From a virus, in IMG/VR virus record IMGVR_UViG_3300042879_002022, positions 1 through 42,018 of that record: 42,018 nucleotides of DNA; one strand, written 5' to 3'. Below the pieces are notes generated by a model. The model made no database searches and was not told where the DNA came from. It saw only the letters and a program-made list of their open reading frames with translations. Made by a program: the position numbers and the translations under genes. This document shows, piece after piece, positions 29,218 to 41,489 of this stretch; the first letter of the stretch is position 1, and every line of letters starts with the position of its first letter.

Positions 29218-29258
29218 AGCTCGGATTTACTGGCGGTCTTCCAGTGTTGGTGGATGTT

Positions 29259-29272
29259 CTGCGGGGGTGTAG
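29259..29272 (+). promoter_or_regulatory. GTAGAG element next to attP
   Basis: The plus strand reads CTGCGGGGGTGTAG followed by AGGT. It lies 10 bp from the tRNA-derived attP core. Its core CGGGGGTGTAGA is also in the capsid leader. Confidence 0.4.
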
Positions 29273-29281
29273 AGGTAAAAA

Positions 29282-29325
29282 ACGGATTTTAAGTCCGCTG
29301 CGTATGCCAATTCCGCCATGCTCCC
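29282..29325 (-). other. Putative attP: 5' half of tRNA-Leu(UAA)
   Basis: On the minus strand these 44 bases read as tRNA-Leu from the acceptor 5' arm through the D-arm (TGGCGGAATTGGCATACGC) and the full anticodon stem-loop with anticodon TAA (CGGACTTAAAATCCG). After the anticodon stem the tRNA similarity stops, so it is not a complete tRNA gene. It lies about 120 bp downstream of the integrase gene. Cyanopodovirus P-SSP7 carries a comparable tRNA-Leu(UAA)-matching segment beside its integrase. Integration here would use the host tRNA-Leu(UAA) gene. Confidence 0.85.
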
Positions 29326-29359
29326 CCGTTGCGCCGCAAGGGATCTCAGGGATTGGGCA

Positions 29360-29399
29360 GGATGCGGGGAAATGCAGTTTCGTGCAATTCTCCGCATCC
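29360..29399. other. Strong 40-nt stem-loop between integrase and attP
   Basis: A 17-position stem (outer arms GGATGCGG and CCGCATCC, one G-T pair and one A-A mismatch) closes a six-base loop. No T-run follows on either strand, so it is not a typical intrinsic terminator. Its position beside attP suggests a role in recombination or int mRNA stability. Confidence 0.7.
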
Positions 29400-29445
29400 G
29401 AAACGCAACCGCTGCGGTCCTGCGGACGTTGCCCACAGTAGGAGC

Positions 29446-30438
29446 TCAGGCCTCGATTGCAGCGGTGCAGGCCGTCAGGTGGTGGGTCTGCAGGTGCATG
29501 TAGCGCTGCACCGCCGCCAGGGTTTTCCAGCCGCCATAGGCCTGGATCTGCTGGAGGGGCACGCCGGCCTGGGCCATGCGCGTCGCCCCGGTGTGACGGG
29601 CGCAGTGCATGGTCAGCTTCCGGTCGCCCTCGAGGCCCATGTGTGCCTTGGCCCGATCAAACAACTCGCGTGCTCGGTGGTATTTCAAGCCGAACACGCG
29701 CTGGCGCGGCACCGGCGGGACGTGAGCCTCGATGAGGCTGCGCGCCTTAGGGCCCAGCGCAATGGTGCGAGGGCTGCCGTTCTTGGTTTTCCAGAACGTG
29801 ATCAGCCCGCGCTCGAGGTCGACGTCCTCGCCGCGCAGCCGCTCAATCTCACCCCAGCGGGTGCAGGTCAGGGTCATGAGCACCAAGACGTCGGCCATCT
29901 CGGTTTCGCCCCACTCCCGGAAGATGTGGCAGAAGGTGGCCAGCTCCTCCTTTGTGATGATCCGGTCTTTGGTGTTGGCGATCTTCAGCTGCTGCGGGAG
30001 ATCCTGCTTTTGGCCGATGTAGCCATGCAGAAGCGCGTCGTTGATCATCCCCTTCAGGCAGCTCACTTTGTGGTTCACCGTCGCGGGACTGTTGCCCCCC
30101 TCGAGCAGGTACTGGCGCCAGCGCTCGACGTCCGGCGCCTTGATCGAATCGAGCTGGGTGGTGGACCCGAAGAACTCAACCGCGTGCTGGCTGTAGATCC
30201 CTGCGGTGCGCTCCCAGGCCAGGCCCTTCCAGCGGATGCGCAGTGACAGGGCCCGGGCGTCTTTGACGGTGATGCCGGTGCCGGTGCTGCGGTTGGTGTC
30301 GGAGCGCGAGGCGATTTGCTCGAGCAGCTCCTTCTGTTTGGCCAGTGCCTCGGCCTTGGTTTTCGCCTTACGGGTGCGGCGGACGCCGTCGACGGTGACG
30401 TCGGCGATCCATCCGTCCGCGATCTTGCGGACTGACAT
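29446..30438 (-). CDS. int: Tyrosine recombinase / phage integrase
   Basis: The protein has 330 residues. Residues 1-45 resemble an arm-binding domain, 55-150 a SAM-like core-binding domain, and 160-330 the catalytic domain. The active-site set is visible: R194 in TCTRWGEIERL, a Lys in KTKNGSPRTIAL (217 or 219), H278-x-x-R281 in MHCARHTGATRM, W304 in GGWKTLA at the usual His/Trp position, and the nucleophile Y313 in QRYMHL. With attP 120 bp away and regulators upstream, this is a plausible lysogeny module. Its ATG is preceded, after 14 bp, by the repeated 12-mer leader (30453-30464). Confidence 0.95.
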   Translation of the reverse strand: MSVRKIADGWIADVTVDGVRRTRKAKTKAEALAKQKELLEQIASRSDTNRSTGTGITVKDARALSLRIRWKGLAWERTAGIYSQHAVEFFGSTTQLDSIKAPDVERWRQYLLEGGNSPATVNHKVSCLKGMINDALLHGYIGQKQDLPQQLKIANTKDRIITKEELATFCHIFREWGETEMADVLVLMTLTCTRWGEIERLRGEDVDLERGLITFWKTKNGSPRTIALGPKARSLIEAHVPPVPRQRVFGLKYHRARELFDRAKAHMGLEGDRKLTMHCARHTGATRMAQAGVPLQQIQAYGGWKTLAAVQRYMHLQTHHLTACTAAIEA

Positions 30439-30452
30439 CGTTTTCGGTGTGG

Positions 30453-30464
30453 TGGTGGTTGGTC
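30453..30464 (-). repeat. 12-mer leader GACCAACCACCA, copy 1
   Basis: Exact copy of a 12-mer found five times in 4.3 kb. It is 14 bp upstream of the integrase ATG, and its GAC overlaps the TGA stop of the upstream winged-helix gene. Confidence 0.8.
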
Positions 30465-30780
30465 ACAGGGCCCGCAGCTGGTTGATCAGGTGCTTGCCCT
30501 TGGTGGTGAGCCGCACAAGGAAGCGCCGGTTATCGGCGGGGTCTCGGTAGGCCTCCACCAGGCCCAGACCTGGCTGGCCGTTGTCCTTGCCGTCGCTCAG
30601 GGCCTGGATGCCACGGCTGACTGAGGCGTTGCTGGTGATCAGCCGCGCCTCGAGTTCCTTGTACTCAACGGGAGCACATTCGGCGATCTCCAGGAACATG
30701 CGGATGCGATGCGCCGGCAGTTGAGCTGGGTCCAAAGTTTTGAAAACATCCAGAGCCCTTGCCAGTTGATCCAGATCCAT
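30463..30780 (-). CDS. MarR-like winged-helix DNA-binding protein
   Basis: The protein has 105 residues. The winged helix is clear: IRMFLEIAECAPVEYKELEA, LITSNASVSRGIQAL (recognition helix), then a wing with LGLVEAYRDPADNRRFLVRL and LTTKGKHLINQL. Its position directly upstream of int suggests control of integration or early transcription. No second copy of this sequence is seen, but the gene at 30935-31315 has the same fold type. The ATG at 30778-30780 is used. Confidence 0.82.
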   Translation of the reverse strand: MDLDQLARALDVFKTLDPAQLPAHRIRMFLEIAECAPVEYKELEARLITSNASVSRGIQALSDGKDNGQPGLGLVEAYRDPADNRRFLVRLTTKGKHLINQLRAL

Positions 30781-30934
30781 GGCTCCCCGGGGTCTCGCAG
30801 GTGTGTCCTAGGACTCTCGCACGCCTGGAGAGAAACCCTGGCCCTGCCCGCTATCTGCTCCCCATAGGCGGCGAAGTGCTGCCACGTCTGGCGTCTGGGG
30901 ATTTCGGCGCTGAAAAGTAAAGCAAGGCGCATAG

Positions 30935-31315
30935 TCAAAGCTCTCCAGACCCGTTGAGTGGTGCAAATGTACTATCCAACAGCTCTTGGGCCTCTTCCGT
31001 TAGTTCCAGCCGATATCCCCGGCGGTGCGGGTGGTTGGTTACTTTCACCAGCCCAAGCCTGGATTCAATCCAGCGCCCGTCCTCCTTGCGGCCGCGGCCA
31101 CGCAGCAGGCACAGGGTCCGATTCACACGCGCGTGATCAATCCCCATGTGTTTCTGCAGATCGGTGACGTGATCGATGCCGCTGTAGATCCAGAGCAGGG
31201 CCTCAGCGGCCACCAGGGGCATCCCGCCATCGAATGTTGATCGCTTGGATGCCTTGCGCAGACCGCCCAGCAGTCCGGCGATGCTGTAGACCGCGACGAT
31301 GTTCCGCGGTCTCAT
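30935..31315 (-). CDS. Second winged-helix regulator
   Basis: The protein has 126 residues. After a short hydrophobic N-terminus, PLVAAEALLWIYSGIDHVTD and HMGIDHARVNRTLCLLRGRG make a helix-turn-helix, followed by a wing LGLVKVTNHPHRRGYRLELT and a C-terminal helix EEAQELLD. This is MarR-like. It overlaps the upstream gene by 4 bp (ATGA). The 154-bp gap to the next regulator has no convincing gene (see the rejected reading frame at 30639-30938). Confidence 0.75.
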   Translation of the reverse strand: MRPRNIVAVYSIAGLLGGLRKASKRSTFDGGMPLVAAEALLWIYSGIDHVTDLQKHMGIDHARVNRTLCLLRGRGRKEDGRWIESRLGLVKVTNHPHRRGYRLELTEEAQELLDSTFAPLNGSGEL

Positions 31316-31623
31316 TGGCGGGGCCTACGGCGAGCGGCAGGGCGGCACAGGCCAGCCAAGACGCGTGCGCGGTTGGCCGGGGTGTTAGCGAGCTTGTGCG
31401 CGATCAGGTGGTACTGGATCAGGGCTTCGGCCTTGCGTTCTTCCTTCTCGCGTTCGCGCTGTTCTGCTTGCTTCTTGCTTGGGTGGCGCATGATCTCCCA
31501 CACCAGATAGGCGGGAATCAGCACCATCCCAAACATGGGAAGGATGGCCAGCAGGTACAGCGCCCCAACCGGGGCCAGCACGACGCCGACCACGGTGAAA
31601 GCTCTTTTGAGCCACTTCTTCAT
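31312..31623 (-). CDS. Small membrane protein with charged C-terminal tail
   Basis: The protein has 103 residues. Two hydrophobic segments (FTVVGVVLAPVGALYLLAIL and FGMVLIPAYLVWEIM, about residues 9-45) are likely membrane helices. A strongly charged helix follows (KKQAEQREREKEERKAEALI) and then an Arg-rich end. It is the only clearly two-pass membrane protein in the early region apart from the one at 31849. A role in host take-over or superinfection exclusion is possible but unsupported. Confidence 0.68.
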   Translation of the reverse strand: MKKWLKRAFTVVGVVLAPVGALYLLAILPMFGMVLIPAYLVWEIMRHPSKKQAEQREREKEERKAEALIQYHLIAHKLANTPANRARVLAGLCRPAARRRPRQ

Positions 31624-31829
31624 GCCTGGGCCTCGAACGCCTGGGCATTGCGCACTTTGAGCAGAGCGCCATGGGCGACGCGCAGGGCGTCTTGGGTATC
31701 GGCCCAGGCGTCGTCGCCGGGTGCCAAGGCCTGGATTTGCACCTCGAGCAGTTCGCTTAGCAGGTGTGCGCGAGGGCGCAGCAGCTCACAGAGCAGCTCG
31801 GCTTCCTTGCGGTTGATGTTGAGTTGCAT
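31620..31829 (-). CDS. Small helical hypothetical protein (69 residues)
   Basis: The sequence MQLNINRKEAELLCELLRPR and the ADTQDALRVAHGALLKVRNA segment form two amphipathic helices. Stop and start codons overlap the next gene by 4 bp. Function unknown. Confidence 0.65.
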   Translation of the reverse strand: MQLNINRKEAELLCELLRPRAHLLSELLEVQIQALAPGDDAWADTQDALRVAHGALLKVRNAQAFEAQA

Positions 31830-31848
31830 GGGTCAATCGCTCTTGTGA

Positions 31849-32103
31849 TCAGGCAACCGCCAATGCGGGCCGTTTGCGAGTCCGGCCAGCGCGCACGGGC
31901 GCGGGCGGGTTCTTGGTTGGTTTCGTAGGCAGTGGCGCTGGGTTGGCCGCGGCCGCCTCCTTTTGGGTTGTGGGCCTCCAGCCGGCGGCGGTGAGCAGCA
32001 GAGCCAGGGCGTGAGCCAGCAGGGGCCGCAGGGCCACGGCCACCAGCTCGAGGGCCAGACCCAGCAGCGCCAGGGCGGCCAGGGCGGGATCGTTGCGGTT
32101 CAT
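31849..32103 (-). CDS. Small membrane protein (84 residues)
   Basis: The start MNRNDPALAALALLGLALEL at 32103 overlaps the stop of the ribbon-helix-helix gene (ATGA). Two Leu/Ala-rich hydrophobic stretches cover residues 7-45, followed by a Pro/Lys/Arg-rich cytoplasmic-type tail. No family recognised. Confidence 0.62.
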   Translation of the reverse strand: MNRNDPALAALALLGLALELVAVALRPLLAHALALLLTAAGWRPTTQKEAAAANPAPLPTKPTKNPPAPVRAGRTRKRPALAVA

Positions 32104-32276
32104 TTGAACGACTCCCACTTCTCAACAGCGCGCTCGAGCAGGTAGGCGCTGAGGTTGGAGAGGCTGCGGCCTTCCTCCAGCGCACGGCGCTCGAGGCGGC
32201 TCATCACTCCATAGGGAACGGTGATCGTCATTCGTTGCGAGCGACGCAGGGCCAGCTCGTCCGGGGTAAGTGTCAT
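32100..32276 (-). CDS. Ribbon-helix-helix (CopG/Arc-type) DNA-binding protein
   Basis: The protein has 58 residues. QRMTITVPYGVMSRLERRAL, followed by EEGRSLSNLSAYLLERAVE, gives the beta strand (TITVPY), first helix, turn and second helix of a ribbon-helix-helix dimer. It is a good candidate regulator of this early block. Its ATG at 32274-32276 is 11 bp downstream of a copy of the 12-mer leader (32288-32299), a plausible autoregulatory operator. The 81-bp gap upstream has no other gene. Confidence 0.82.
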   Translation of the reverse strand: MTLTPDELALRRSQRMTITVPYGVMSRLERRALEEGRSLSNLSAYLLERAVEKWESFK

Positions 32277-32287
32277 GGGTGGGCGTT

Positions 32288-32299
32288 TGGTGGTTGGTC
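32288..32299 (-). repeat. 12-mer leader GACCAACCACCA, copy 2
   Basis: Exact copy, 11 bp upstream of the ribbon-helix-helix gene start. Confidence 0.8.
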
Positions 32300-32357
32300 G
32301 CTGGGTGAGCCCAGCAGGGAACCCGAGGGCCAGGGGCCCAGGGGCTCGGTGCTGAGG

Positions 32358-32843
32358 TCAGCCGATGCCGCAGCGGCGAGCGATGGCCGCGGCGGATTCG
32401 GGCGGCGCGTCGTGCGCCATGCAGGCCTTGAACAGCTCCGCGTGGCTGGTGTCCTCGTGTTCGTTGAGGGTGTAGTAGCTGTCACCGACTCGCACGCAGA
32501 ACGTGGCGATCGCCCCGGTGAGCCGCTCGGAGATGCGGAACGAGGCGTAACCCACGCCACGAGTCCAGCGCTCGGGCGGCAGGCAGTTGAGCAGCTCCTC
32601 GTAACGCTCCTGGGTGATGCGGCGCGGGCCGGTGCAGTAGCGCTGGCGATCGCTCTGCTCTTGGAGCTCGAGCGCCTCGATGGTGGGCAGGGTGTAGGCC
32701 TGCTTGCTGACGTGGCCTAGGGCCCGCAGCTCCTCGAGGGTCTCGCCACCCCAGAAGCTCCGGCCATCGCGGCCGAGGAATGTGTAGATCCGGCCGGTGG
32801 TGGGATCCCACACGGCGGGCGTGCTGTCGTTGAAGTTGCTCAT
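32358..32843 (-). CDS. Uncharacterised early protein (161 residues)
   Basis: The protein starts MSNFNDSTPAVWDPTTGRIY and contains FLGRDGRSFWGGETLEELRA, a central acidic helix (TIEALELQEQSDRQRY) and a C-terminal CMAHDAPPESAAAIARRCG. The first half reads like a small beta-rich domain. No family recognised. It is one of the first genes transcribed leftward. The leader copy at 32853-32864 is 9 bp upstream of its ATG. Confidence 0.72.
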   Translation of the reverse strand: MSNFNDSTPAVWDPTTGRIYTFLGRDGRSFWGGETLEELRALGHVSKQAYTLPTIEALELQEQSDRQRYCTGPRRITQERYEELLNCLPPERWTRGVGYASFRISERLTGAIATFCVRVGDSYYTLNEHEDTSHAELFKACMAHDAPPESAAAIARRCGIG

Positions 32844-32852
32844 GGTTGGTGG

Positions 32853-32864
32853 TGGTGGTTGGTC
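32853..32864 (-). repeat. 12-mer leader GACCAACCACCA, copy 3
   Basis: Exact copy, 9 bp upstream of the 161-residue gene start. The spacer is also CA-rich (CCACCAACC). Confidence 0.8.
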
Positions 32865-32911
32865 GAGGGGTGAGCCCCTCAGGGAGCCGCAACAGCAGCT
32901 CCGGGAGAGGG

Positions 32912-33061
32912 TCAGGGCCCAGGCCGCTCCGCCGGCATCGCACGCCCGCGGATCAGGCCCAGTTCCGGCCGGTCAGGCGCCCCAGGCGCCAACGGCTTGT
33001 GGAGCCAGCCCAAGGCCAGCCCCAGGGCCAGCCCATAGGCCGCCAGTGATGCGCCGCGCAT
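32912..33061 (-). CDS. Small protein with N-terminal signal/membrane helix (49 residues)
   Basis: The protein starts MRGASLAAYGLALGLALGWL, a signal-like or membrane helix, then becomes Pro/Arg-rich (APGAPDRPELGLIRGRAMPA). The ATG at 33059-33061 shares its A with the stop of the 63-residue gene (TGATG). Function unknown. Confidence 0.55.
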   Translation of the reverse strand: MRGASLAAYGLALGLALGWLHKPLAPGAPDRPELGLIRGRAMPAERPGP

Positions 33062-33252
33062 CAGTACCCCAGCCAGTGCAGCAGTGCCTCGGCGTTGCGC
33101 TCGTCCAGGTGGACAGCGCTCACCCCGTGGTCGTCCTCGTACACGTCGTCCAGGGTGAACCCGTGCTCGCCCAGCAGTTGCACCGCGTCGGCGCGGGTCA
33201 GGTTGCCGTAGCCGTCCGCGTAGGACAGCACCGACTCCTCGTAGCTATTCAT
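33061..33252 (-). CDS. Small acidic hypothetical protein (63 residues)
   Basis: The protein starts MNSYEESVLSYADGYGNLTR, continues with the helix ADAVQLLGEHGFTLDDVYED and ends in an acidic helix DERNAEALLHWLGY. It may be the first gene of the leftward early block. The leader copy at 33267-33278 lies 14 bp upstream. Confidence 0.68.
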   Translation of the reverse strand: MNSYEESVLSYADGYGNLTRADAVQLLGEHGFTLDDVYEDDHGVSAVHLDERNAEALLHWLGY

Positions 33253-33503
33253 CGGTCTAGGTGCGGTGGTGGTTGGTCAGACCGCGGGCCCGGCGCAGTG
33301 CGCTGCAGCCCCGTAGCGGTCCTGCTGCCATCCTGCTTGATCTCCACGGGGGTGGAGCAGATGCCCTGGGGCGCACCTGCCAATCTGTAACAACTCTTTA
33401 CGTTGCCCCGTGGCGCCTGCCTGCCGGCGCAGGTCCAGCGGCGCCAGCACCCCCACCCCACCAGGCCGGACAGGCCCACCAGCAGCCCCCAGCGGATGTG
33501 CAA
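33249..33503 (-). CDS. Doubtful small ORF upstream of the early block
   Basis: A TTG-initiated frame of 84 residues with a hydrophobic N-terminus (HIRWGLLVGLSGLVGWGCW), whose stop overlaps the next ATG (ATGA). Against it, the repeated 12-mer leader, which is non-coding or at a gene end elsewhere, lies inside its C-terminal codons (SDQPPPHLDR), and no good ribosome-binding site is seen. It may simply be leader sequence. Confidence 0.28.
   Translation of the reverse strand: MHIRWGLLVGLSGLVGWGCWRRWTCAGRQAPRGNVKSCYRLAGAPQGICSTPVEIKQDGSRTATGLQRTAPGPRSDQPPPHLDR
33267..33278 (-). repeat. 12-mer leader GACCAACCACCA, copy 4
   Basis: Exact copy, 14 bp upstream of the 63-residue gene start at 33252. 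Confidence 0.8.
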
Positions 33504-34050
33504 TCCGCTGAGAACCCAGCCGCCACCAGCCCCCAGGCCCTAGCAGGCTGCAGGCCGGCTGCACCCAGGCCCGCAGGGCCCAGCAGCCACAGGCAGAAAA
33601 GGCAGGGGGTGCAGGGGGGAGCTGTCGCCCGCACGTACTGGGCACCCCACCACATCGCGCGACCCAAAAATCGGCCCCTGGGTCTGAACCGGATCTAGCC
33701 AGGGTCAATACGGGGGTGGAGCGGGAACTGGGTTGGGTTGATGTTGGGAGTGTGCCCACCCTGGTGGAGGACGTCGGGGGTGGAGCGGAGTGCAGACGGT
33801 CTTGCGTGGAGAGGGAGACGTCTGGAGACGGGGTGGGAGGGCTGCGCCGGATGTTTCTGGAGATTTCTTCCTACCTACCAGTAGAGATATCCAGAGCAAC
33901 TGTGAAATGGCCCAGTGGTGGAGCGGAGCTCTACGGGGGCGAGTAGTAAGCCTTTATGATTTGAGTGCATGAGATCCCTTCCGGCGACAGGGGTCGGATC
34001 CTGAAGCCGGTATTAAGGGGATCTCGCCAGTGTTATGCGCCACTGACTGC
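33504..34050. promoter_or_regulatory. Divergent control region between the two transcription blocks
   Basis: No convincing gene lies in this stretch of about 550 bp, which separates leftward and rightward transcription. It holds three iterons around GGTGGAGCGG (33716-33725, 33780-33789, and GTGGTGGAGCGGAG at 33915-33928); two TCTGGAGA copies, one forming an imperfect inverted repeat with ATATCCAGA near 33895; and a GTAGAGC-family element at 33931-33946. Promoters, operators for the winged-helix or ribbon-helix-helix proteins and a replication origin are all possible here. Confidence 0.55.
33931..33946 (-). promoter_or_regulatory. GTAGAGC element in the divergent control region
   Basis: On the minus strand CTACTCGCCCCCGTAG is followed by AGCTCC. 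It belongs to the same family as the elements before gene 11 and SSB, with a spacer two bases longer. Confidence 0.45.
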
Positions 34051-34425
34051 ATGAACCCTATCGAATCTGACGGCGAGGATTACGTCATGCTCCACAGGCA
34101 AGGTCGAGAGGCTTGCGCGGAGCTGTTGAAGGAGCGGAAATTGCTCCCCCGCGATCTGGCGGTGCTCTGGGGCCTGACCATTCATCTGCACTGGCGCAGT
34201 GGCCGGGTGAAGGTGACGGCCAAGTGCCTGGCGGAGCAGCTGGGGATGCGGATTCAGGACGTCACCCACTCGCTGAAGCGGCTGCGGGAGCACCTAGTGA
34301 TCAGCAAGGCCTACGACCAGACCACGGGCGAGACCTACTTCTTGTTCAACCCCTGGTACATCTCTGTTGGTGGGGCAAAACGCCGCGGCCACATCCACCG
34401 TCAGTTCACGGATTCACTGGAGTGA
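34051..34425 (+). CDS. Winged-helix protein, regulator or replication initiator
   Basis: The ATG at 34051 gives 124 residues beginning MNPIESDGEDYVM; a GTG 21 bp upstream is an alternative. LLPRDLAVLWGLTIHLHW is followed by the helix-turn-helix GRVKVTAKCLAEQLGMRIQD then VTHSLKRLREHLVISKAYD and a wing GETYFLFNPWYISVGG. The FLFNP..I..GG ending resembles RepL-type plasmid initiators and related wHTH proteins. It is the first gene of the rightward block, next to the iteron-bearing control region, so either transcription control or replication initiation is plausible. Confidence 0.7.
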   Translation: MNPIESDGEDYVMLHRQGREACAELLKERKLLPRDLAVLWGLTIHLHWRSGRVKVTAKCLAEQLGMRIQDVTHSLKRLREHLVISKAYDQTTGETYFLFNPWYISVGGAKRRGHIHRQFTDSLE

Positions 34426-34449
34426 GCCAAGCAAGGCCGATAGCCTGAA

Positions 34450-34695
34450 GTGAACTGCTCTACACCCGTGTATTTGTCCAACACAGAGCGGGAACGCCTT
34501 GGTCTGTTTGGTTTTGGCTCTGATGTTCCTGATGACGTGGTGGCCGCAGCTGAAGCGGCGCTGGCATCGCCTTGTGGAGGTGCTTGTCCTGCCCCAGCGG
34601 CGAAGACCACGAAGCGTGCACGCAATAAGGCCGGTGAATACGTCGGTGATGACCCGGCGACGGCTGAAGTGAACGAGGCTTATGAGGCTGGCTAA
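34450..34695 (+). CDS. Small conserved phage protein upstream of TerL (81 residues)
   Basis: The C-terminus KTTKRARNKAGEYVGDDPAT followed by AEVNEAYEAG resembles an uncharacterised basic-acidic tail that recurs in small cyanophage proteins. The start is uncertain: GTG 34450, GTG 34468 or TTG 34474. A GTAGAGC-family element occupies 34460-34473, and if it acts as it seems to elsewhere, the start would be the one after it. Confidence 0.6.
   Translation: MNCSTPVYLSNTERERLGLFGFGSDVPDDVVAAAEAALASPCGGACPAPAAKTTKRARNKAGEYVGDDPATAEVNEAYEAG
34460..34473 (-). promoter_or_regulatory. GTAGAGC element at the start of the 81-residue gene
   Basis: On the minus strand ATACACGGGTGTAG is followed by AGCAG. 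It overlaps the possible upstream start codons of the 81-residue gene. Confidence 0.4.
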
Positions 34696-34758
34696 GGTCA
34701 TGTCGCCCACCCAGGTGGTGCTGGGAGGCCCGCTAGCGCTTCGTCTCTGCGGACGTGC

Positions 34759-34770
34759 TGGTGGTTGGTC
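34759..34770 (-). repeat. 12-mer leader GACCAACCACCA, copy 5
   Basis: Exact copy in the 114-bp gap before TerL. No minus-strand gene follows it; on the plus strand it is 39 bp upstream of the TerL ATG. This makes a pure minus-strand ribosome-leader role less certain. Confidence 0.75.
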
Positions 34771-34809
34771 GGAAGCCCATTCTGCCCTCGTGGTGGGAGG
34801 GGCTTCCAC

Positions 34810-36582
34810 ATGAGTTGGACCCCAATCCCGCCGGAACTGGGTGTCGGGCGGTTCCCATATTTCTTCTGCTACATCCTGCGGGAGCTGGGGTTGGCGGAAG
34901 TGCCGACCAAACAGCAGCTGCGGATCTGTGACTGGCAGGAGAACGGCCCCTCCCGTCAGATCACCGTTGGCTTTCGTGGTGTGGCGAAGAGCACGATCGC
35001 CGCGGCCAGGGCCTTGCACCGGCTACGGATCGATCCGTTCAACGAGAAGGTGCTGATTCCAGGCTCCACAGCGGAGAAGGCCCTGGAGATCACCACGTTC
35101 ATGGCGCGGTGCATCCGTGATATCGACATCCTGAGGTGCCTGGAGCCACGCAACGACGGGCGGAGCAGCACCAGGGCGTTTGATGTGGGCCCTGCAGTGG
35201 TGGATCAAAGCCCGAGTGTCCGCGCTGTGGGAATCCTGTCGCCGTCATTGACCGGCAAGCGCTGCACGATCGCCATCCCGGACGACATCGAGACCCTGAA
35301 CAACTCGATCACACCGCTGAAACAGGAGCGTTTGGCCGCGGCCGTGACCGAATTGGAGGCAATCCTCAAGCCGGATGAGGGCCAGGAGCTGCCGCGGATG
35401 GTCCAGTTCCTGGGTACGCCTCACCTGGAGACGTCGCTTTACCTGCGGCTGGTGCGTGAGCGGAATTACTCGATCCGCTACTGGCCAGCGCGGTATCCAG
35501 ATCCCTCTGATGCGGACCAGTGGGACTGCTACGAGGGACATATCGACCCCGTGATGGCAGCTGAGGTCGAGGAAGACCCGTCATTGGTAGGTCAGCCGAC
35601 TGATCCAGAGCGTTTCGGGCACGAGGAACTGCTGGGCCGCGAGATGCGGATGACCAGGGCGTCGGTGCAGCTGCAGTTCCAGCTGAACTGCCGCTTGTCG
35701 ACCCTGGATCGCTATCCGATCCGCCTTGGCGACCTGATCGTGCTGCCGCTGGACGGCAAGGCGTTGCCAGAGGTGGTGGCGTGGTCGTCGGGAACGGAGT
35801 ACCGGATCCAATCCATCCCGTGTGTGGGCCTTGGCGCGGACCGGTACTACCACTCACCGGCCGTGATTCAGGGCTGGCTGCCCCAGGAAGAGGCCTGGCG
35901 GTGCGTGCTGGCCATTGACCCGTCCGGCCGCGGCAGCGACGAGTTGGCGTGGGCTGTGGTGGCGGAGTTGAACGGCAACCTATTCGTCCTCGAGAGCGGT
36001 GGCACCACCCGCGGCTACGAGGAGGAGGTGCTGGTCCACCTGGCGAACGCCGCCAAGCGCTGGAAGGTGAACTACGTCATCCCGGAGCCGAACTACGGCG
36101 ATGGCATGTTCGCCGCGTTGCTGAAGCCGGTGATGCAACGCATCTGGCCCTGCACGGTGGAGGAGCCGCCCAGGAGCGCCGGGCAGAAGGAAAAGCGCAT
36201 CGTGGATGTGCTCGGGCCGCTGAGCCAGCAGCACCGGCTGCTGTTCAACAGCGAGCTGGTGCAGAAGGATTGGAACGGCGCGGAGCGTGACCCCGATACG
36301 GGCCATCAGCGGTCATTGATGTACCAGATGAGCCGCATCACGGCCGATCGGGGCTGCCTCACTTACTACGACCGCATCGATGCGCTGGCGATTGGCTGCT
36401 CATGGTTCGTTGAGGCCGCTGCTCAAGACCAGGTGAAGGCGCAACAGCAACGCGCCGACGAGATCGAGGACTGGTCTAGGCAGGCCTGGATGGACGAGAC
36501 AGGGGCCAGCGTGGATGCACTGGCCTTGGGGTTCCGTCCAATGGCCCGCAGCGCTGCTTATGGCGGCGTCAGGCGGCGGTAG
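34810..36582 (+). CDS. terL: Terminase large subunit (T7 gp19-like)
   Basis: The ATG at 34810 follows a strong GGGAGGGG ribosome-binding site; the product has 590 residues (T7 gp19 is 586). The ATPase shows Walker A GFRGVAKST (54-62) and Walker B TIAIPDDIE (153-161). The nuclease domain has D370 in VLAIDPSGRGSDELAWAVV and a later acidic site in YDRIDALAIGCSWF. It packages DNA through the portal. It is on the plus strand, opposite to all head and tail genes, and its end overlaps the small terminase gene by 14 bp in convergent orientation. That layout differs from T7, where all late genes share one strand. Confidence 0.95.
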   Translation: MSWTPIPPELGVGRFPYFFCYILRELGLAEVPTKQQLRICDWQENGPSRQITVGFRGVAKSTIAAARALHRLRIDPFNEKVLIPGSTAEKALEITTFMARCIRDIDILRCLEPRNDGRSSTRAFDVGPAVVDQSPSVRAVGILSPSLTGKRCTIAIPDDIETLNNSITPLKQERLAAAVTELEAILKPDEGQELPRMVQFLGTPHLETSLYLRLVRERNYSIRYWPARYPDPSDADQWDCYEGHIDPVMAAEVEEDPSLVGQPTDPERFGHEELLGREMRMTRASVQLQFQLNCRLSTLDRYPIRLGDLIVLPLDGKALPEVVAWSSGTEYRIQSIPCVGLGADRYYHSPAVIQGWLPQEEAWRCVLAIDPSGRGSDELAWAVVAELNGNLFVLESGGTTRGYEEEVLVHLANAAKRWKVNYVIPEPNYGDGMFAALLKPVMQRIWPCTVEEPPRSAGQKEKRIVDVLGPLSQQHRLLFNSELVQKDWNGAERDPDTGHQRSLMYQMSRITADRGCLTYYDRIDALAIGCSWFVEAAAQDQVKAQQQRADEIEDWSRQAWMDETGASVDALALGFRPMARSAAYGGVRRR

Positions 36583-38231: not shown

Positions 38232-38249
38232 GTCTGCACCCCTGCAGAC
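38232..38249. promoter_or_regulatory. Perfect stem-loop at the end of the RT gene
   Basis: GTCTGCA/TGCAGAC arms (7 bp, perfect) close a CCCC loop on the plus strand. It begins in the RT stop codon and lies 8 bp before the GTG of the next gene. There is no T-run. It resembles the GTAGAGC family (CTGCACCCCTGCAG core), and could separate DGR and lysis expression. Confidence 0.6.
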
Positions 38250-39262
38250 TATCGGCCTGGCCTGTGCCGGCAAATCCAGGCGTAGATCTCTGGGCGGTGT
38301 TCAGGATTGCAGCGCCAAAGCAGCTGCCTCACATACCGCAGGCTTGCCGTGTCATTGGCGTGGCTGAGGTAGGCCATGGTCGTCTCCAGGCTGCAGCCCG
38401 CCGCGGCCTTGCGCTTCAGGCGTTTGAGCGAGCGCTTGCGGATCAGCTTGTAGGTGCGCCAGTGGCGGTAGCCAACCCAGTCCACGCCGTCATCCACCCA
38501 GCCCACACCGCTCTTGTTGTTGAGCCTCATGCCCAGCTCCTCCACCTTCTGCGCCATCGCCTGGTGGGCAGCGTGGGCAGCTGCCGCGGTCTCGAACAGG
38601 GCGATCATGTCGTCGCAGTAGCGCAGGTAGGTGTCGAGCTTCAGCTCGCGCCGGGCGAAGTGATCGAGGGGGTTGAGCGCCATGTTGGCCATGATCTGGC
38701 TGGTGCTCGCGCCAATGGGGATGCCGCAGTCGCCACCGTTCACCGTGATGTAGCGCCACAGCAGAGCAAGCGTTGGCTTGCATTTGATGTGACGGCACAT
38801 CTCGGCATAGAGCGCTTCGTGGTTGATGCTGTAAAAGAACTTGCTGATGTCCAGGCTGAGGTAATACTTCCAGCGACGATCCTTCAGATAGGCATGAAAC
38901 TGCTGGCTGCAGCGATGGGTGCCGCGGCCAATCAGGCAGCTGTAGGTGTGAGCGATTAACCGCTGCTGCAGGGGCACACGCAGCACGTTGCAGACGGCGT
39001 GCTGCACGATGCGATCCTCAAGGAACGGCGCTTGGATCAGCCGGGGCTTTGGGTCCTTGATCCAGAACTCATAGTGCGGCCGTGGCTTATACCTGCCGTC
39101 CAGCAGCTTGGCTTCCAGGTGCGACAGGTTGACCGCCAGGTTGCTCTCGTACTGGAGGATCAACCGCTTGTCGCCCTTGCCGCTTCTGACTTCCTTCCAG
39201 GCGTCCAGCAGCGCGTCGTAGCTGGCGATCTGTGGCCACAAATTGCTGAGCTTGTGGGGCAT
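38249..39262 (-). CDS. DGR reverse transcriptase
   Basis: The protein has 337 residues. Motifs in order: RT2-like KPRLIQAPFLEDRIVQHAV (72-90); RT3 LSLDISKFFYSINHEAL with catalytic D138; the DGR-diagnostic RT4 GIPIGASTSQIMANM with IGxxxSQ at 183-189; RT5 TYLRYCDDMIALF with Y-C-D-D at 215-218; and a basic thumb (RKRSLKRLKRKAA, 275-287). The IGxxxSQ pattern separates DGR enzymes from group II intron and retron RTs. It should use TR RNA, with Avd, to make adenine-mutagenised cDNA. The ATG at 39262 is 135 bp downstream of TR. The YCDD variant in place of the more usual YMDD/YVDD is noted. Confidence 0.96.
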   Translation of the reverse strand: MPHKLSNLWPQIASYDALLDAWKEVRSGKGDKRLILQYESNLAVNLSHLEAKLLDGRYKPRPHYEFWIKDPKPRLIQAPFLEDRIVQHAVCNVLRVPLQQRLIAHTYSCLIGRGTHRCSQQFHAYLKDRRWKYYLSLDISKFFYSINHEALYAEMCRHIKCKPTLALLWRYITVNGGDCGIPIGASTSQIMANMALNPLDHFARRELKLDTYLRYCDDMIALFETAAAAHAAHQAMAQKVEELGMRLNNKSGVGWVDDGVDWVGYRHWRTYKLIRKRSLKRLKRKAAAGCSLETTMAYLSHANDTASLRYVRQLLWRCNPEHRPEIYAWICRHRPGR

Positions 39263-39309
39263 GGCGAGACGGTCGCAGAGCTACTGGAATCGCCTTCCCC
39301 GGCTATTGA

Positions 39310-39324
39310 GAGCCCAGTGGGCTC
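39310..39324. other. Stem-loop in the TR-RT spacer
   Basis: GAGCCCA/TGGGCTC arms are a perfect 7-bp inverted repeat around a single central base, and extend further (TTGAG...CTCAA) with a 2-base bulge. It lies in the 135-bp spacer between TR and RT, the part of DGR RNAs that is structured and needed for cDNA priming in BPP-1. Confidence 0.65.
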
Positions 39325-39397
39325 AAGGACGAACTCCCTCCCTTCAACACGACACGGCCGGTCCCACGTGAGGCCCGACGCTGGGCGTGATTGTGTC

Positions 39398-39521
39398 GAA
39401 GTCGGACGGCACGCGCCCCATTGTTGTTGTTCGCGTTACCGGATGTGTTGTTGAGATTCACGTTGAACACGCCCGCATTGGCCGTGTTGTCCCAGTTGCC
39501 CCCAACATTCGGCAGCATGTC
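39398..39521 (-). repeat. DGR template repeat (TR)
   Basis: This 124-bp segment aligns without gaps to VR at 39962-40085. In the VR reading frame TR would encode an Asn-rich segment (12 Asn codons, AAC or AAT), the usual codon design that lets adenine mutation reach many amino acids without stop codons. Its 5' end overlaps the avd stop codon by 2 bases. Outside these limits the first mismatches are at non-adenine positions, which sets the repeat ends. Confidence 0.97.
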
Positions 39522-39954
39522 AGGAGTCCGCCCTGAGTTCAGAGCGTAGCCAGCCCCCTAGAAGTTTGCCCACTTCGTCGAGCTTCTCGCAGGCAACACG
39601 GTGTCGCCTGGGCTCGATGAACTTGGCTTCCACTGCCAGGTTGAGCAGCTGCCTGAGGAACTCGTGCTGCACATTGAAGCGCGTGAGATCGGTCTTCTTG
39701 TGCTGCTTCTTGTTGGCGGCGATGGCCAACTCCAGACAGAGATACCCGATCTCACGCATCTTGGCGCTGAGGACATACTTTTCATACCGCGGCATGTTCC
39801 TTGTAAGAACGTCGAGGTAGAGGCAGAGGTCCTTGCAGCGCCGCTCGATGAGCCAGTAACGCTCCCGCCGGCGGTCGAGGCCCAGGGCCTGTTCTTCCGG
39901 CGGTGTGGCGTCAGAGGGAAGGCCCGCTGCCGCGGGCCCCACATGGCTGCTCAC
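39520..39954 (-). CDS. avd: Avd-like DGR accessory variability determinant
   Basis: The protein has 144 residues. After a Pro-rich start it is a four-helix protein, highly basic: RRRERYWLIERRCKDLCLYL, DVLTRNMPRYEKYVLSAKMR, EIGYLCLELAIAANKKQHKK and FNVQHEFLRQLLNLAVEAKF. It matches the Avd/23S-rRNA-intervening-sequence four-helix family that forms a barrel, binds RT and TR RNA and is required for mutagenic retrohoming. The start is GTG, in a GTGA overlap with the target gene stop, so it is translated by coupling. The TR begins at its stop codon. Confidence 0.92.
   Translation of the reverse strand: MSSHVGPAAAGLPSDATPPEEQALGLDRRRERYWLIERRCKDLCLYLDVLTRNMPRYEKYVLSAKMREIGYLCLELAIAANKKQHKKTDLTRFNVQHEFLRQLLNLAVEAKFIEPRRHRVACEKLDEVGKLLGGWLRSELRADS
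39921..39938. promoter_or_regulatory. GC-rich stem-loop downstream of VR
   Basis: On the coding strand GGCCCGC-GGCA-GCGGGCC is a perfect 7-bp stem with a four-base loop, 23 bp beyond the VR 3' end and inside the first codons of avd. In BPP-1, a similar hairpin/cruciform after VR promotes target recognition; the GGCA loop fits the G-purine-N-A type I recall for phage DGRs. Confidence 0.8.
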
Positions 39955-41489
39955 GCAGCCAGAAGGCGGACGGCACGCGCCCCAGCGTTGTTGTACGCGT
40001 AACCGGATGCGCTGCTGAGAAGCACGGTGAACACGCCCGCAGCGGCCGTGTAGTCCCAGACGCCCCCAACAATCGGCAGCAGGTCGTTGGGACTGGAGCG
40101 ATACACACCGTCACCACCAAAGATGTTGGTGCTGGTCTGCGTGCCGCTGGTGCCCAGCTCCCTGGGAATCAGGGTCTCCGTCATCGCCCGCTTGGTGGCG
40201 TTGCTGAAGCTGCTGGAGGGGTGGAAGGTGCCACCGCTGTGGGGCACCAGGTAGCTCCAGCCAGCGCTGCCGAACCAGATGCCGTCATCGGCTGCGGCAA
40301 CGCTCTCTGCGGCCAGGGACAGCACGCCAGAAGCGCCTGTGATCGAGGCGTTGCCGGTGGTGTTGGTCCAGGCTGCAGAGCTCGGGAACAGACGGAAGCC
40401 CCCGTTGCCGCCGCCGCTGTTGGTCAGGCCAGGGGCCAGTTCCCACTGGTTGCCCTGAATGTCCACGATCCCGCTGAGCTGACCGTTGTGAGTGGTGTGC
40501 TCAGTGGCTGCAGCACCGCTGATCCGAGCGGCGCCGGTGAAGGCGCGGCTGTTGCGGCCGGCGTAGCCCGAGCCGTTGTGCCCGGTCAGATCCGTGCGGG
40601 CGAACTGCAGGCTGGACTTGTTCACGTCCGAGCCGTTGTTGTTGTTGCCCTTGGGCGCATAGGGCGCCACGTCCATCCAGGCCGCCTTGGTGGTGGCACC
40701 GGCGATGGGTGCGCCGCCAGCATCGAGCAGGGCCTGGGCATGGGCCAGCGACAGGAAGGCGATCTGGCTGCGGATCCACAGGGGGATGGGCGCAAAGTCC
40801 AGGCCGCGGGTCTTCACCAGGGCCCACACGCCACCGAAGTTGTTGGCGGGGGTGCCAGCAGCGCTGTTCAGCGCGGTGCTGTTCACCAGGCTGAAGGGGC
40901 TGTTCCAGTCAGTGCCGCCTTCGTCCTTGGTGGTGGGGCTGCAGGGCCAGTGCAGGGGCCGCGACACGGCGATGCCGCCGGTGAGCGGGGTGCCGCCGGG
41001 GCCGTTGGTGTGGTTCGGAGAGCCAGAGCCATCGGGCTTGCCGTTGGAGATCTGGTACTTGTCCACGAACACGCCGATCAGGCTCTGGCCTGCGTCCGTG
41101 AACGCCTTGGGCAGGACAGCGTTGCCACTCTGCGTGTCACTGATCACCACCTTCGTGCCATAGAACGGCGCGTTGGTGTTGCCGGGGGCCTGCACGTCGA
41201 TGTAGTGCGCCGGGATGAAGCACACAATCGAAGCGCTCGGGATGTGGATGTAGTTCCCGAAGTGAGGGTGCTCGCGCAGCGGGTCGTAGGTGCCGGCGCT
41301 CAGTGGCGCGAAGTCGGCAGGCAGCAGCTCAATGGGGCAGCAACCGATGCCGAAGCCGCTCATGCCGGCCAGGCCCACGGTGTAGCGCCACTGATCGCGG
41401 TAGCCGTACCACTCGTTCTCGATGTTGAAGATCCCGGAGGGACCAACAATGCGCTCCTTGACGCGGAGCAATGGTGTGATGACAGTCAT
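39951..41489 (-). CDS. DGR target protein: C-type-lectin/FGE-like tail protein with variable C-terminus
   Basis: The protein has 512 residues. The C-terminal half has the formylglycine-enzyme-like C-lectin features of DGR targets: a central VDIQGNQWELAPG (compare the GN.WE motif), the WSYLVPHSGG strand region and the end GARAVRLLAA. VR codes for residues 469-509; 13 amino acids differ from the TR-encoded residues and cluster on the expected ligand-binding face. The first 330 residues are beta-rich with FHP/SPNHTNG loops and are probably the virion-attachment part. It lies in the tail-fibre operon, so it is most likely a receptor-binding tip. The start is ATG 41489, 3 bp after the upstream stop. 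Confidence 0.93.
   Translation of the reverse strand: MTVITPLLRVKERIVGPSGIFNIENEWYGYRDQWRYTVGLAGMSGFGIGCCPIELLPADFAPLSAGTYDPLREHPHFGNYIHIPSASIVCFIPAHYIDVQAPGNTNAPFYGTKVVISDTQSGNAVLPKAFTDAGQSLIGVFVDKYQISNGKPDGSGSPNHTNGPGGTPLTGGIAVSRPLHWPCSPTTKDEGGTDWNSPFSLVNSTALNSAAGTPANNFGGVWALVKTRGLDFAPIPLWIRSQIAFLSLAHAQALLDAGGAPIAGATTKAAWMDVAPYAPKGNNNNGSDVNKSSLQFARTDLTGHNGSGYAGRNSRAFTGAARISGAAATEHTTHNGQLSGIVDIQGNQWELAPGLTNSGGGNGGFRLFPSSAAWTNTTGNASITGASGVLSLAAESVAAADDGIWFGSAGWSYLVPHSGGTFHPSSSFSNATKRAMTETLIPRELGTSGTQTSTNIFGGDGVYRSSPNDLLPIVGGVWDYTAAAGVFTVLLSSASGYAYNNAGARAVRLLAA
39962..40085 (-). repeat. DGR variable repeat (VR)
   Basis: 124 bp at the 3' end of the target gene, 8 bp before the stop codon. It differs from TR at 18 positions, all of them adenine in TR. 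Both ends are unmutated, GC-rich and identical to TR, and the 3' part (coding GGGGCGCGTGCCGTC) is the expected initiation-of-mutagenic-homing segment. Confidence 0.97.

What the first reader, a model, noticed from the sequence alone, without database searches (positions are those of the whole stretch)
30453..34770. Exact 12-mer GACCAACCACCA repeated five times upstream of early genes
Identical copies occur at 30453-30464, 32288-32299, 32853-32864, 33267-33278 and 34759-34770. Four are 9-14 bp upstream of minus-strand start codons (integrase, ribbon-helix-helix protein, 161-residue protein, 63-residue protein). No Shine-Dalgarno sequence is present at these genes. The element could be an operator for the ribbon-helix-helix or winged-helix regulators, or a CA-rich translation leader for early genes.
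Basis: seen in the sequence. Interest (0 to 1): 0.72.

Follow-up and report, generated by a model that had tools for sequence, protein, structure and literature searches.

The report
Phage antisense RNA targeting early genes
Five identical 12-letter repeats in a cyanobacterial virus are four target sites just ahead of early genes plus one mirror-image copy in a folded RNA leader ahead of the DNA-packaging gene; the two sides change together across dozens of related viruses, which suggests that one viral RNA regulates a whole set of viral genes by base-pairing.

Summary
The five exact GACCAACCACCA copies are real. Four are C/A-rich leaders 9-14 nt upstream of early leftward genes (integrase, RHH, 161-aa, 63-aa). 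About 50 related cyanopodovirus loci carry this terminase-leader module: hairpin HP0, a G/U element, then a 14-18 bp hairpin HP2 ending just before the start codon, with strong covariation. HP2 folds better on the terminase-sense strand in 35 of 35 sequences. The G/U element differs between lineages, yet in each genome it is the exact complement (10-22 nt) of the repeated leader before that genome's own integrase and other early genes. This held in genomes where the module was found by structure alone, including two cyanobacterial assemblies. Best explanation: a trans-acting antisense RNA, the terminase mRNA leader or an sRNA cut from it, pairs with the start-codon-proximal leaders of all early mRNAs and most likely blocks their translation. 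It works like P1/P7 c4 and P4 CI RNA, but as one regulator with many co-diversifying targets. No expression data exist. An RHH operator is not supported.

The parts
30453..30464 (-). C/A-rich target element in the integrase leader
   Evidence: exact copy; conserved before the integrase in nearly all relatives
32288..32299 (-). C/A-rich target element in the leader of the 58-aa RHH gene
   Evidence: conserved in L001, L003, L004
32853..32864 (-). C/A-rich target element in the leader of the 161-aa gene
   Evidence: conserved in L001, L003, L004
33267..33278 (-). C/A-rich target element in the leader of the 63-aa gene
   Evidence: conserved position in relatives
34759..34770 (+).
   Evidence: complementary to all four targets (predicted duplexes -31.9 to -36.0 kcal/mol)
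34710..34725 (+). HP0: hairpin CCCAG-GUGGUG-CUGGG with conserved loop
   Evidence: covariation in alignment A2 (G-C to A-U in 11 rows at one pair)
34730..34764 (+). HP1: predicted hairpin that pairs the first half of the G/U element and leaves UUGGUC (34765-34770) single-stranded
   Evidence: minimum-energy fold of the window only; not tested by covariation
34771..34807 (+). HP2: hairpin ending 2 nt before the terminase ATG
   Evidence: 35/35 relatives more stable on the terminase-sense strand; covariation
34810..36582 (+). terminase large subunit gene downstream of the module
   Evidence: PHROG 38, E=2e-72
34057..34425 (+). winged-helix-like gene at the head of the rightward cluster; candidate regulator
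   Evidence: weak HTH_Crp_2 match below cut-off; homologues precede the module in relatives
34450..34695 (+). 81-aa gene immediately upstream of the module
   Evidence: conserved in most relatives
29446..30438 (-). tyrosine integrase, putative target gene
   Evidence: PHROG 1
32100..32276 (-). RHH_5 protein gene, putative target
   Evidence: PF07878, E=1e-12
32358..32843 (-). 161-aa gene, putative target
   Evidence: no family match
33061..33252 (-). 63-aa gene, putative target
   Evidence: PHROG 25588, unknown function

Best explanation
The repeat is one half of an RNA-RNA regulatory circuit. The leader of the terminase mRNA, or a small RNA processed from it, presents a G/U-rich element between two hairpins. 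This element base-pairs with the identical C/A-rich sequence just upstream of the start codons of the phage's early genes (integrase, RHH and others; anti-restriction genes in relatives). Shown by sequence: the structured terminase-sense leader, the exact complementarity, and its co-variation across lineages. Inferred: that both RNAs meet, that pairing occurs, and that it blocks 30S binding because it covers the start-codon region. The likely role is shut-off of early and integration genes, when the rightward cluster is transcribed in a lysogen or late in infection.
For: (1) HP0 and HP2 covary: 95.5% of cells paired, 59 double-change cells against 20.5 shuffled, 0/500 shuffles, slid controls far lower. 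(2) HP2 is more stable on the terminase-sense strand in 35/35 unique sequences, 128 G-U pairs against 15, so the terminase-sense RNA is the selected molecule. (4) Integrase leaders: own complement mean 14 nt against 8.9 across clades; 9-clade permutation P=6e-5; up to 19-22 nt, reaching into HP2. Predicted duplexes -30.4 own, -23.5 cross. (5) Held-out test: modules found by a covariance model built on other genomes predicted the early leaders of L348 (12 nt), L351 (17), L353 (17), L354 (12), L015/L016 (12), L352 (11, a new variant containing T/A) and G222 (14, new variant). The predicted 12-mers occur 7 times in G052 and 0 in G222, and 5 and 0 for the other variant. (6) Targets are unpaired (0.83 against 0.41) and a median 13 nt from the ATG.
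Against: No transcript or protein data. The G/U element itself is predicted to be mostly paired (0.27 unpaired); in the window only a 6-nt toehold is free. L324 has the module but no clear match. Repeated C/A leaders occur without a detectable module in marine S38C3, so the leader may also have a cis role. C/A against G/U low complexity gives some cross-lineage complementarity. In one search the variant was chosen by matching, so that test is partly circular; one search is not. Hairpins next to the early copies are enriched but show no strand preference (41 against 42 of 100).
Confidence: 0.68

Rival explanations
1. DNA site: the 12-mer is an asymmetric operator bound by a phage repressor, like mycobacteriophage stoperators, with lineage-specific sequence tracking the repressor.
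For: One DNA orientation, several identical copies in gene gaps, lineage-specific consensus, as for stoperators (PMC6550527).
Against: Copies keep a fixed place next to start codons in sense orientation. The terminase copy lies in an RNA leader with strand-specific, G-U-containing, covarying hairpins. Variants are almost purely C/A on the mRNA strand. Complementarity extends into HP2 in some integrase leaders. No protein shared by all genomes was linked to it.
Confidence: 0.14
2. Purely cis-acting C/A-rich translation leader for early genes (unstructured, non-Shine-Dalgarno initiation), homogenised by duplication.
For: Unpaired leaders; C/A richness runs on into coding starts such as MTTTT; present in S38C3 without a module.
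Against: Does not explain an exact, lineage-tracking complement in the terminase leader, nor its prediction in held-out genomes; motif rare in host genomes.
Confidence: 0.1
3. Recombination seams: short repeats kept alike by gene exchange among early gene cassettes, without regulation.
For: An extra cassette with the same leader is inserted in L001; identical copies within a genome.
Against: The terminase copy is inverted, not at a cassette border, and embedded in a conserved RNA fold.
Confidence: 0.05
4. Promoter of the phage's T7-like RNA polymerase.
For: T7-like polymerase is encoded; repeated lineage-specific sites in one orientation.
Against: Sequence upstream of the 12-mer is not conserved; late genes lack the motif; a better candidate, CCCGTAGAGC, precedes two later genes.
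Confidence: 0.03

Closest known systems
c4 antisense RNA of phages P1 and P7 (PMC12197685)
   Same: Phage RNA pairs with complementary sequence around the ribosome binding site of a phage mRNA, blocks translation, and sets heteroimmunity between related phages.
   Different: c4 targets ant mRNA; here one element matches 3-7 separate early mRNAs, lies in a terminase leader, and is unrelated in sequence. Function not shown.
CI RNA (seqA/seqB/seqC) of phage P4 (PMC4825925)
   Same: RNA processed from a longer transcript, pairing with more than one complementary site of the same phage.
   Different: P4 CI RNA causes transcription termination in its own leader; here targets are start-codon-proximal leaders of separate genes on the other strand.
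Start-associated sequences (SAS/ESAS) of Cluster K mycobacteriophages (PMC3203893) and Microbacterium cluster EF phages (PMC7302621)
   Same: 13-bp asymmetric repeat directly before many start codons, nearly always one orientation, sometimes with inverted repeats upstream and a single copy on the other strand.
   Different: SAS resembles a Shine-Dalgarno sequence; its inverted repeats do not support RNA pairing; no complementary structured partner was reported. Here the partner is found and co-varies.
Stoperators of Cluster A mycobacteriophages (PMC6550527)
   Same: Asymmetric repeated sites, one orientation, lineage-specific consensus.
   Different: They are DNA sites for a protein repressor; here the evidence points to RNA.

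Membership tests
Phage antisense RNA regulators (c4 / CI RNA type) | Exact complementarity between a regulator RNA and phage target mRNAs | tested here: met
   10-22 nt in integrase leaders, own against cross-clade (one row is a start mis-call); held-out genomes
Phage antisense RNA regulators (c4 / CI RNA type) | Regulator has conserved secondary structure on the regulator strand | tested here: met
Phage antisense RNA regulators (c4 / CI RNA type) | Pairing region near the target's translation start | tested here: met
   median 13 nt upstream of ATG, n=103
Phage antisense RNA regulators (c4 / CI RNA type) | Regulator RNA is transcribed and changes target expression or immunity | not testable with these tools
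   no transcriptome or genetics available
Phage antisense RNA regulators (c4 / CI RNA type) | Homology to a described RNA family | tested here: not met
   no Rfam match at gathering threshold; only a chance-level hit near the module
SAS/ESAS | 13-bp repeat immediately upstream of start codons, mostly one orientation | tested here: met
SAS/ESAS | Shine-Dalgarno-like sequence (GGGATAGGAGCCC) | tested here: not met
   motif is GACCAACCACCA; no purine-rich SD
RHH operator | RHH gene present wherever the motif architecture is present | tested here: not met
   no RHH match in L008, L141, L144
Stoperator | Repressor protein binds the DNA site | not testable with these tools
   needs binding assay

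The most novel reading that the evidence does not exclude
A widespread RNA-based immunity and timing switch in temperate T7-like cyanophages: the terminase-leader RNA of a resident prophage silences the early genes of incoming phages with the same leader variant, so that the dozen or so co-diversifying sequence variants define immunity groups, with all targets in a genome switching sequence together.
Probability: 0.3. Interest if true: 0.92.

Novelty: new variant of a known kind. Interest (0 to 1): 0.8.

Why it matters
It would be a phage regulon run by a single antisense RNA hidden in a structural gene's leader, with its targets readable directly from sequence. It suggests how T7-like phages with integrases in abundant freshwater and marine cyanobacteria may control early genes and possibly superinfection immunity. 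It poses a testable evolutionary puzzle, namely how one regulator and three to seven targets change sequence together many times. It also offers a covariance model for finding such prophages and a ready-made orthogonal set of RNA regulators for cyanobacteria.

Tried and rejected
Host-wide leader motif: rejected, 14 copies in six Cyanobiaceae genomes of about 16 Mb. T7-like RNAP promoter: flanks not conserved; other candidate promoter sequence found. RHH operator: gene absent in genomes with the same architecture. Early-gene hairpins as a conserved RNA part: enriched upstream of the copies (28% of 46 in the top 5% of local hairpin energies, MWU P=2e-4, copies not independent) but no strand asymmetry among 100, so not claimed. 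A first crude hairpin score missed odd-length stems and was redone. Rfam: nothing. Genome-contig scan with the integrase found no relative. Host sigma-70 promoters and terminators around the region: nothing beyond chance. The prophage-like L256 does not show the matching pair.
Full report
OBSERVATION. The five GACCAACCACCA copies are exactly where reported, all on the minus strand. Allowing two mismatches, 15 sites are found against 3.5 +/- 1.8 in shuffles, with 0 of 100 shuffles as high. Four end 9-14 nt before minus-strand ATGs. The fifth, 34759-34770, has no minus-strand gene behind it. The window is a complete virus record with a 127-bp terminal repeat. It encodes a T7-like RNA polymerase, integrase, portal, capsid and tail genes and a diversity-generating retroelement. 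The nearest isolate, by polymerase, is Synechococcus phage S-SRP02 (48% identity). Its published description does not mention promoters, motifs or hairpins (PMC8790148).

RELATIVES. In phages with 74-98% identical polymerase the same 12-mer, or its first 11 letters, stands before the same genes and before an extra gene inserted in L001. More distant relatives have a different C/A-rich element in the same places: CCCAACAACCACC in S-SRP02, L015 and L016, CACCACCACCA in L008, ACCAACCAACC in the marine phage S38C3. The element is not a host habit: the 11-mer occurs 14 times in six Cyanobiaceae genomes totalling about 16 Mb.

THE FIFTH COPY. In every one of these lineages where the region was seen, except S38C3, one copy is on the antisense side of the terminase cluster (for gene positions). 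A terminase-based scan brought in 80 loci. About 50 show, on the terminase-sense strand, a G/U-rich element followed by a hairpin that ends a few bases before the terminase start codon. One search asked whether this element is complementary to leaders of early genes in the same genome: 30 of 35 loci matched over 11-14 nt (14 was the longest length tried), in about nine different variants. The five exceptions were L324, L348, L349, L351 and L354. For L348/L349, L351 and L354 the module was later found slightly upstream, before a small gene, and does match. L324 remains a genuine exception.

RNA LEVEL. The terminase-side hairpin HP2 is more stable on the terminase-sense strand in 35 of 35 unique sequences, by 9.8 kcal/mol on average, because of conserved G-U pairs (128 against 15). 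An alignment of 30 leaders supports HP2 and an upstream hairpin HP0 with loop GUGGUG: 95.5% of cells paired, 59 cells with changes on both sides against 20.5 in shuffles (0 of 500), and slid versions far below. Rfam has no matching family. By contrast, hairpins beside the early copies are only enriched and show no strand preference; I do not count them as established.

CO-VARIATION. Using integrase leaders only, the longest exact complement to the genome's own terminase leader averages 14 nt, against 8.9 nt between clades. A permutation over nine clade representatives gives P=6e-5, even with one mis-called integrase start (L323) left in. In S-SRP02, L317, L336 and L319 it reaches 19-22 nt and continues into the 5' arm of HP2. 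Predicted duplexes average -30.4 kcal/mol own and -23.5 cross. On a terminase tree most multi-member variants form single clades, and about 20 labels need at least 19 changes, although some labels differ trivially.

HELD-OUT TEST. A covariance model built from 30 leaders found the module in genomes not used for it, including two Cyanobiaceae assemblies. Its G/U element then predicted the early leaders: L348 12 nt before three genes including integrase, L351 17, L353 17, L354 12, L015/L016 12, L352 11 with a new variant in which a T in the target is mirrored by an A, and G222 14 nt before its integrase, again a new variant. The 12-mer predicted for G052 occurs 7 times there and not in G222; the one for G222 occurs 5 times there and not in G052; each of these counts includes the copy in the module itself. 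I regard this as the strongest evidence, because the early targets were not used to find the module.

MECHANISM. The early elements are single-stranded (0.83 unpaired, controls 0.41) and lie a median 13 nt before the ATG, so pairing would occlude ribosome binding. In the window fold the first half of the G/U element is paired in hairpin HP1, while UUGGUC remains free between HP1 and HP2, a possible toehold for the targets' 5' GACCAA. Window targets pair at -31.9 to -36.0 kcal/mol, five non-target leaders at -15.9 to -26.8. Putative targets across lineages include integrase in nearly all genomes, ArdC-type and other anti-restriction proteins, RusA-like and RHH genes: establishment functions. 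The module lies downstream of a winged-helix gene and an 81-aa gene on the opposite strand. Expression of that cluster in a lysogen would shut off the early genes and could give immunity; late expression would shut off early translation. Which of these holds is inference.

COMPARISON. It works like the c4 RNA of P1/P7, an antisense RNA pairing at ribosome binding sites with a role in heteroimmunity (PMC12197685), and like P4 CI RNA, a processed RNA with more than one target site (PMC4825925). Architecturally the early side resembles the start-associated sequences of Cluster K mycobacteriophages (PMC3203893) and Microbacterium EF phages (PMC7302621), whose function is open. Membership in any of these is not claimed: expression and effect are untested, and there is no sequence family match.

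LIMITS. No transcripts. Low-complexity C/A and G/U sequences inflate cross-matching, which the own-versus-cross design controls for. Some marine relatives keep repeated C/A leaders without a detected module, so the leader probably also serves translation in cis. A DNA-binding repressor remains the main rival.

Noticed in passing
window 38249-40085: Diversity-generating retroelement: reverse transcriptase 38249-39262(-), template 39398-39521 and variable repeat 39962-40085; all 18 mismatches are at template adenines on the minus strand.
   Followed up: partly
window 33348, 33712, 33776, 33917 (+): GGGGGTGGAGC three times and a related GGTGGAGCGG in the non-coding region between the divergent gene clusters: candidate operator cluster.
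   Followed up: no
window 30807-30813; L143 upstream of 13625 and of 10024: TCCTAGGA-type palindrome before the MarR/winged-helix gene and, in S-SRP02, also before the divergent winged-helix gene: likely autoregulatory operator.
   Followed up: no
window 26684, 16723 (-); also 33937, 1281: CCCGTAGAGC with a nearby inverted GTCTAC before the ssDNA-binding protein and tail genes: candidate phage RNA polymerase promoters.
   Followed up: no
window 29227-29436 (-): Sequence after the integrase translates as MAELAYAADLKS, typical of a tRNA 3' fragment; possible attP.
   Followed up: no
L306, L008, L336, L332 early genes: Many early proteins begin MTTTT, MATTTT or MTSTSTS; the C/A-rich stretch continues into the coding region, as if selected for an unstructured start.
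   Followed up: no
L348 2925-3072: The structure model also hits the antisense of the integrase leader, suggesting that early leaders and the terminase module may share descent by inverted duplication.
   Followed up: no
A2 columns 33-48 (HP0 loop): The HP0 loop GUGGUG is nearly invariant across lineages while the G/U element varies; it could pair with the ACCACC present in most C/A elements.
   Followed up: no
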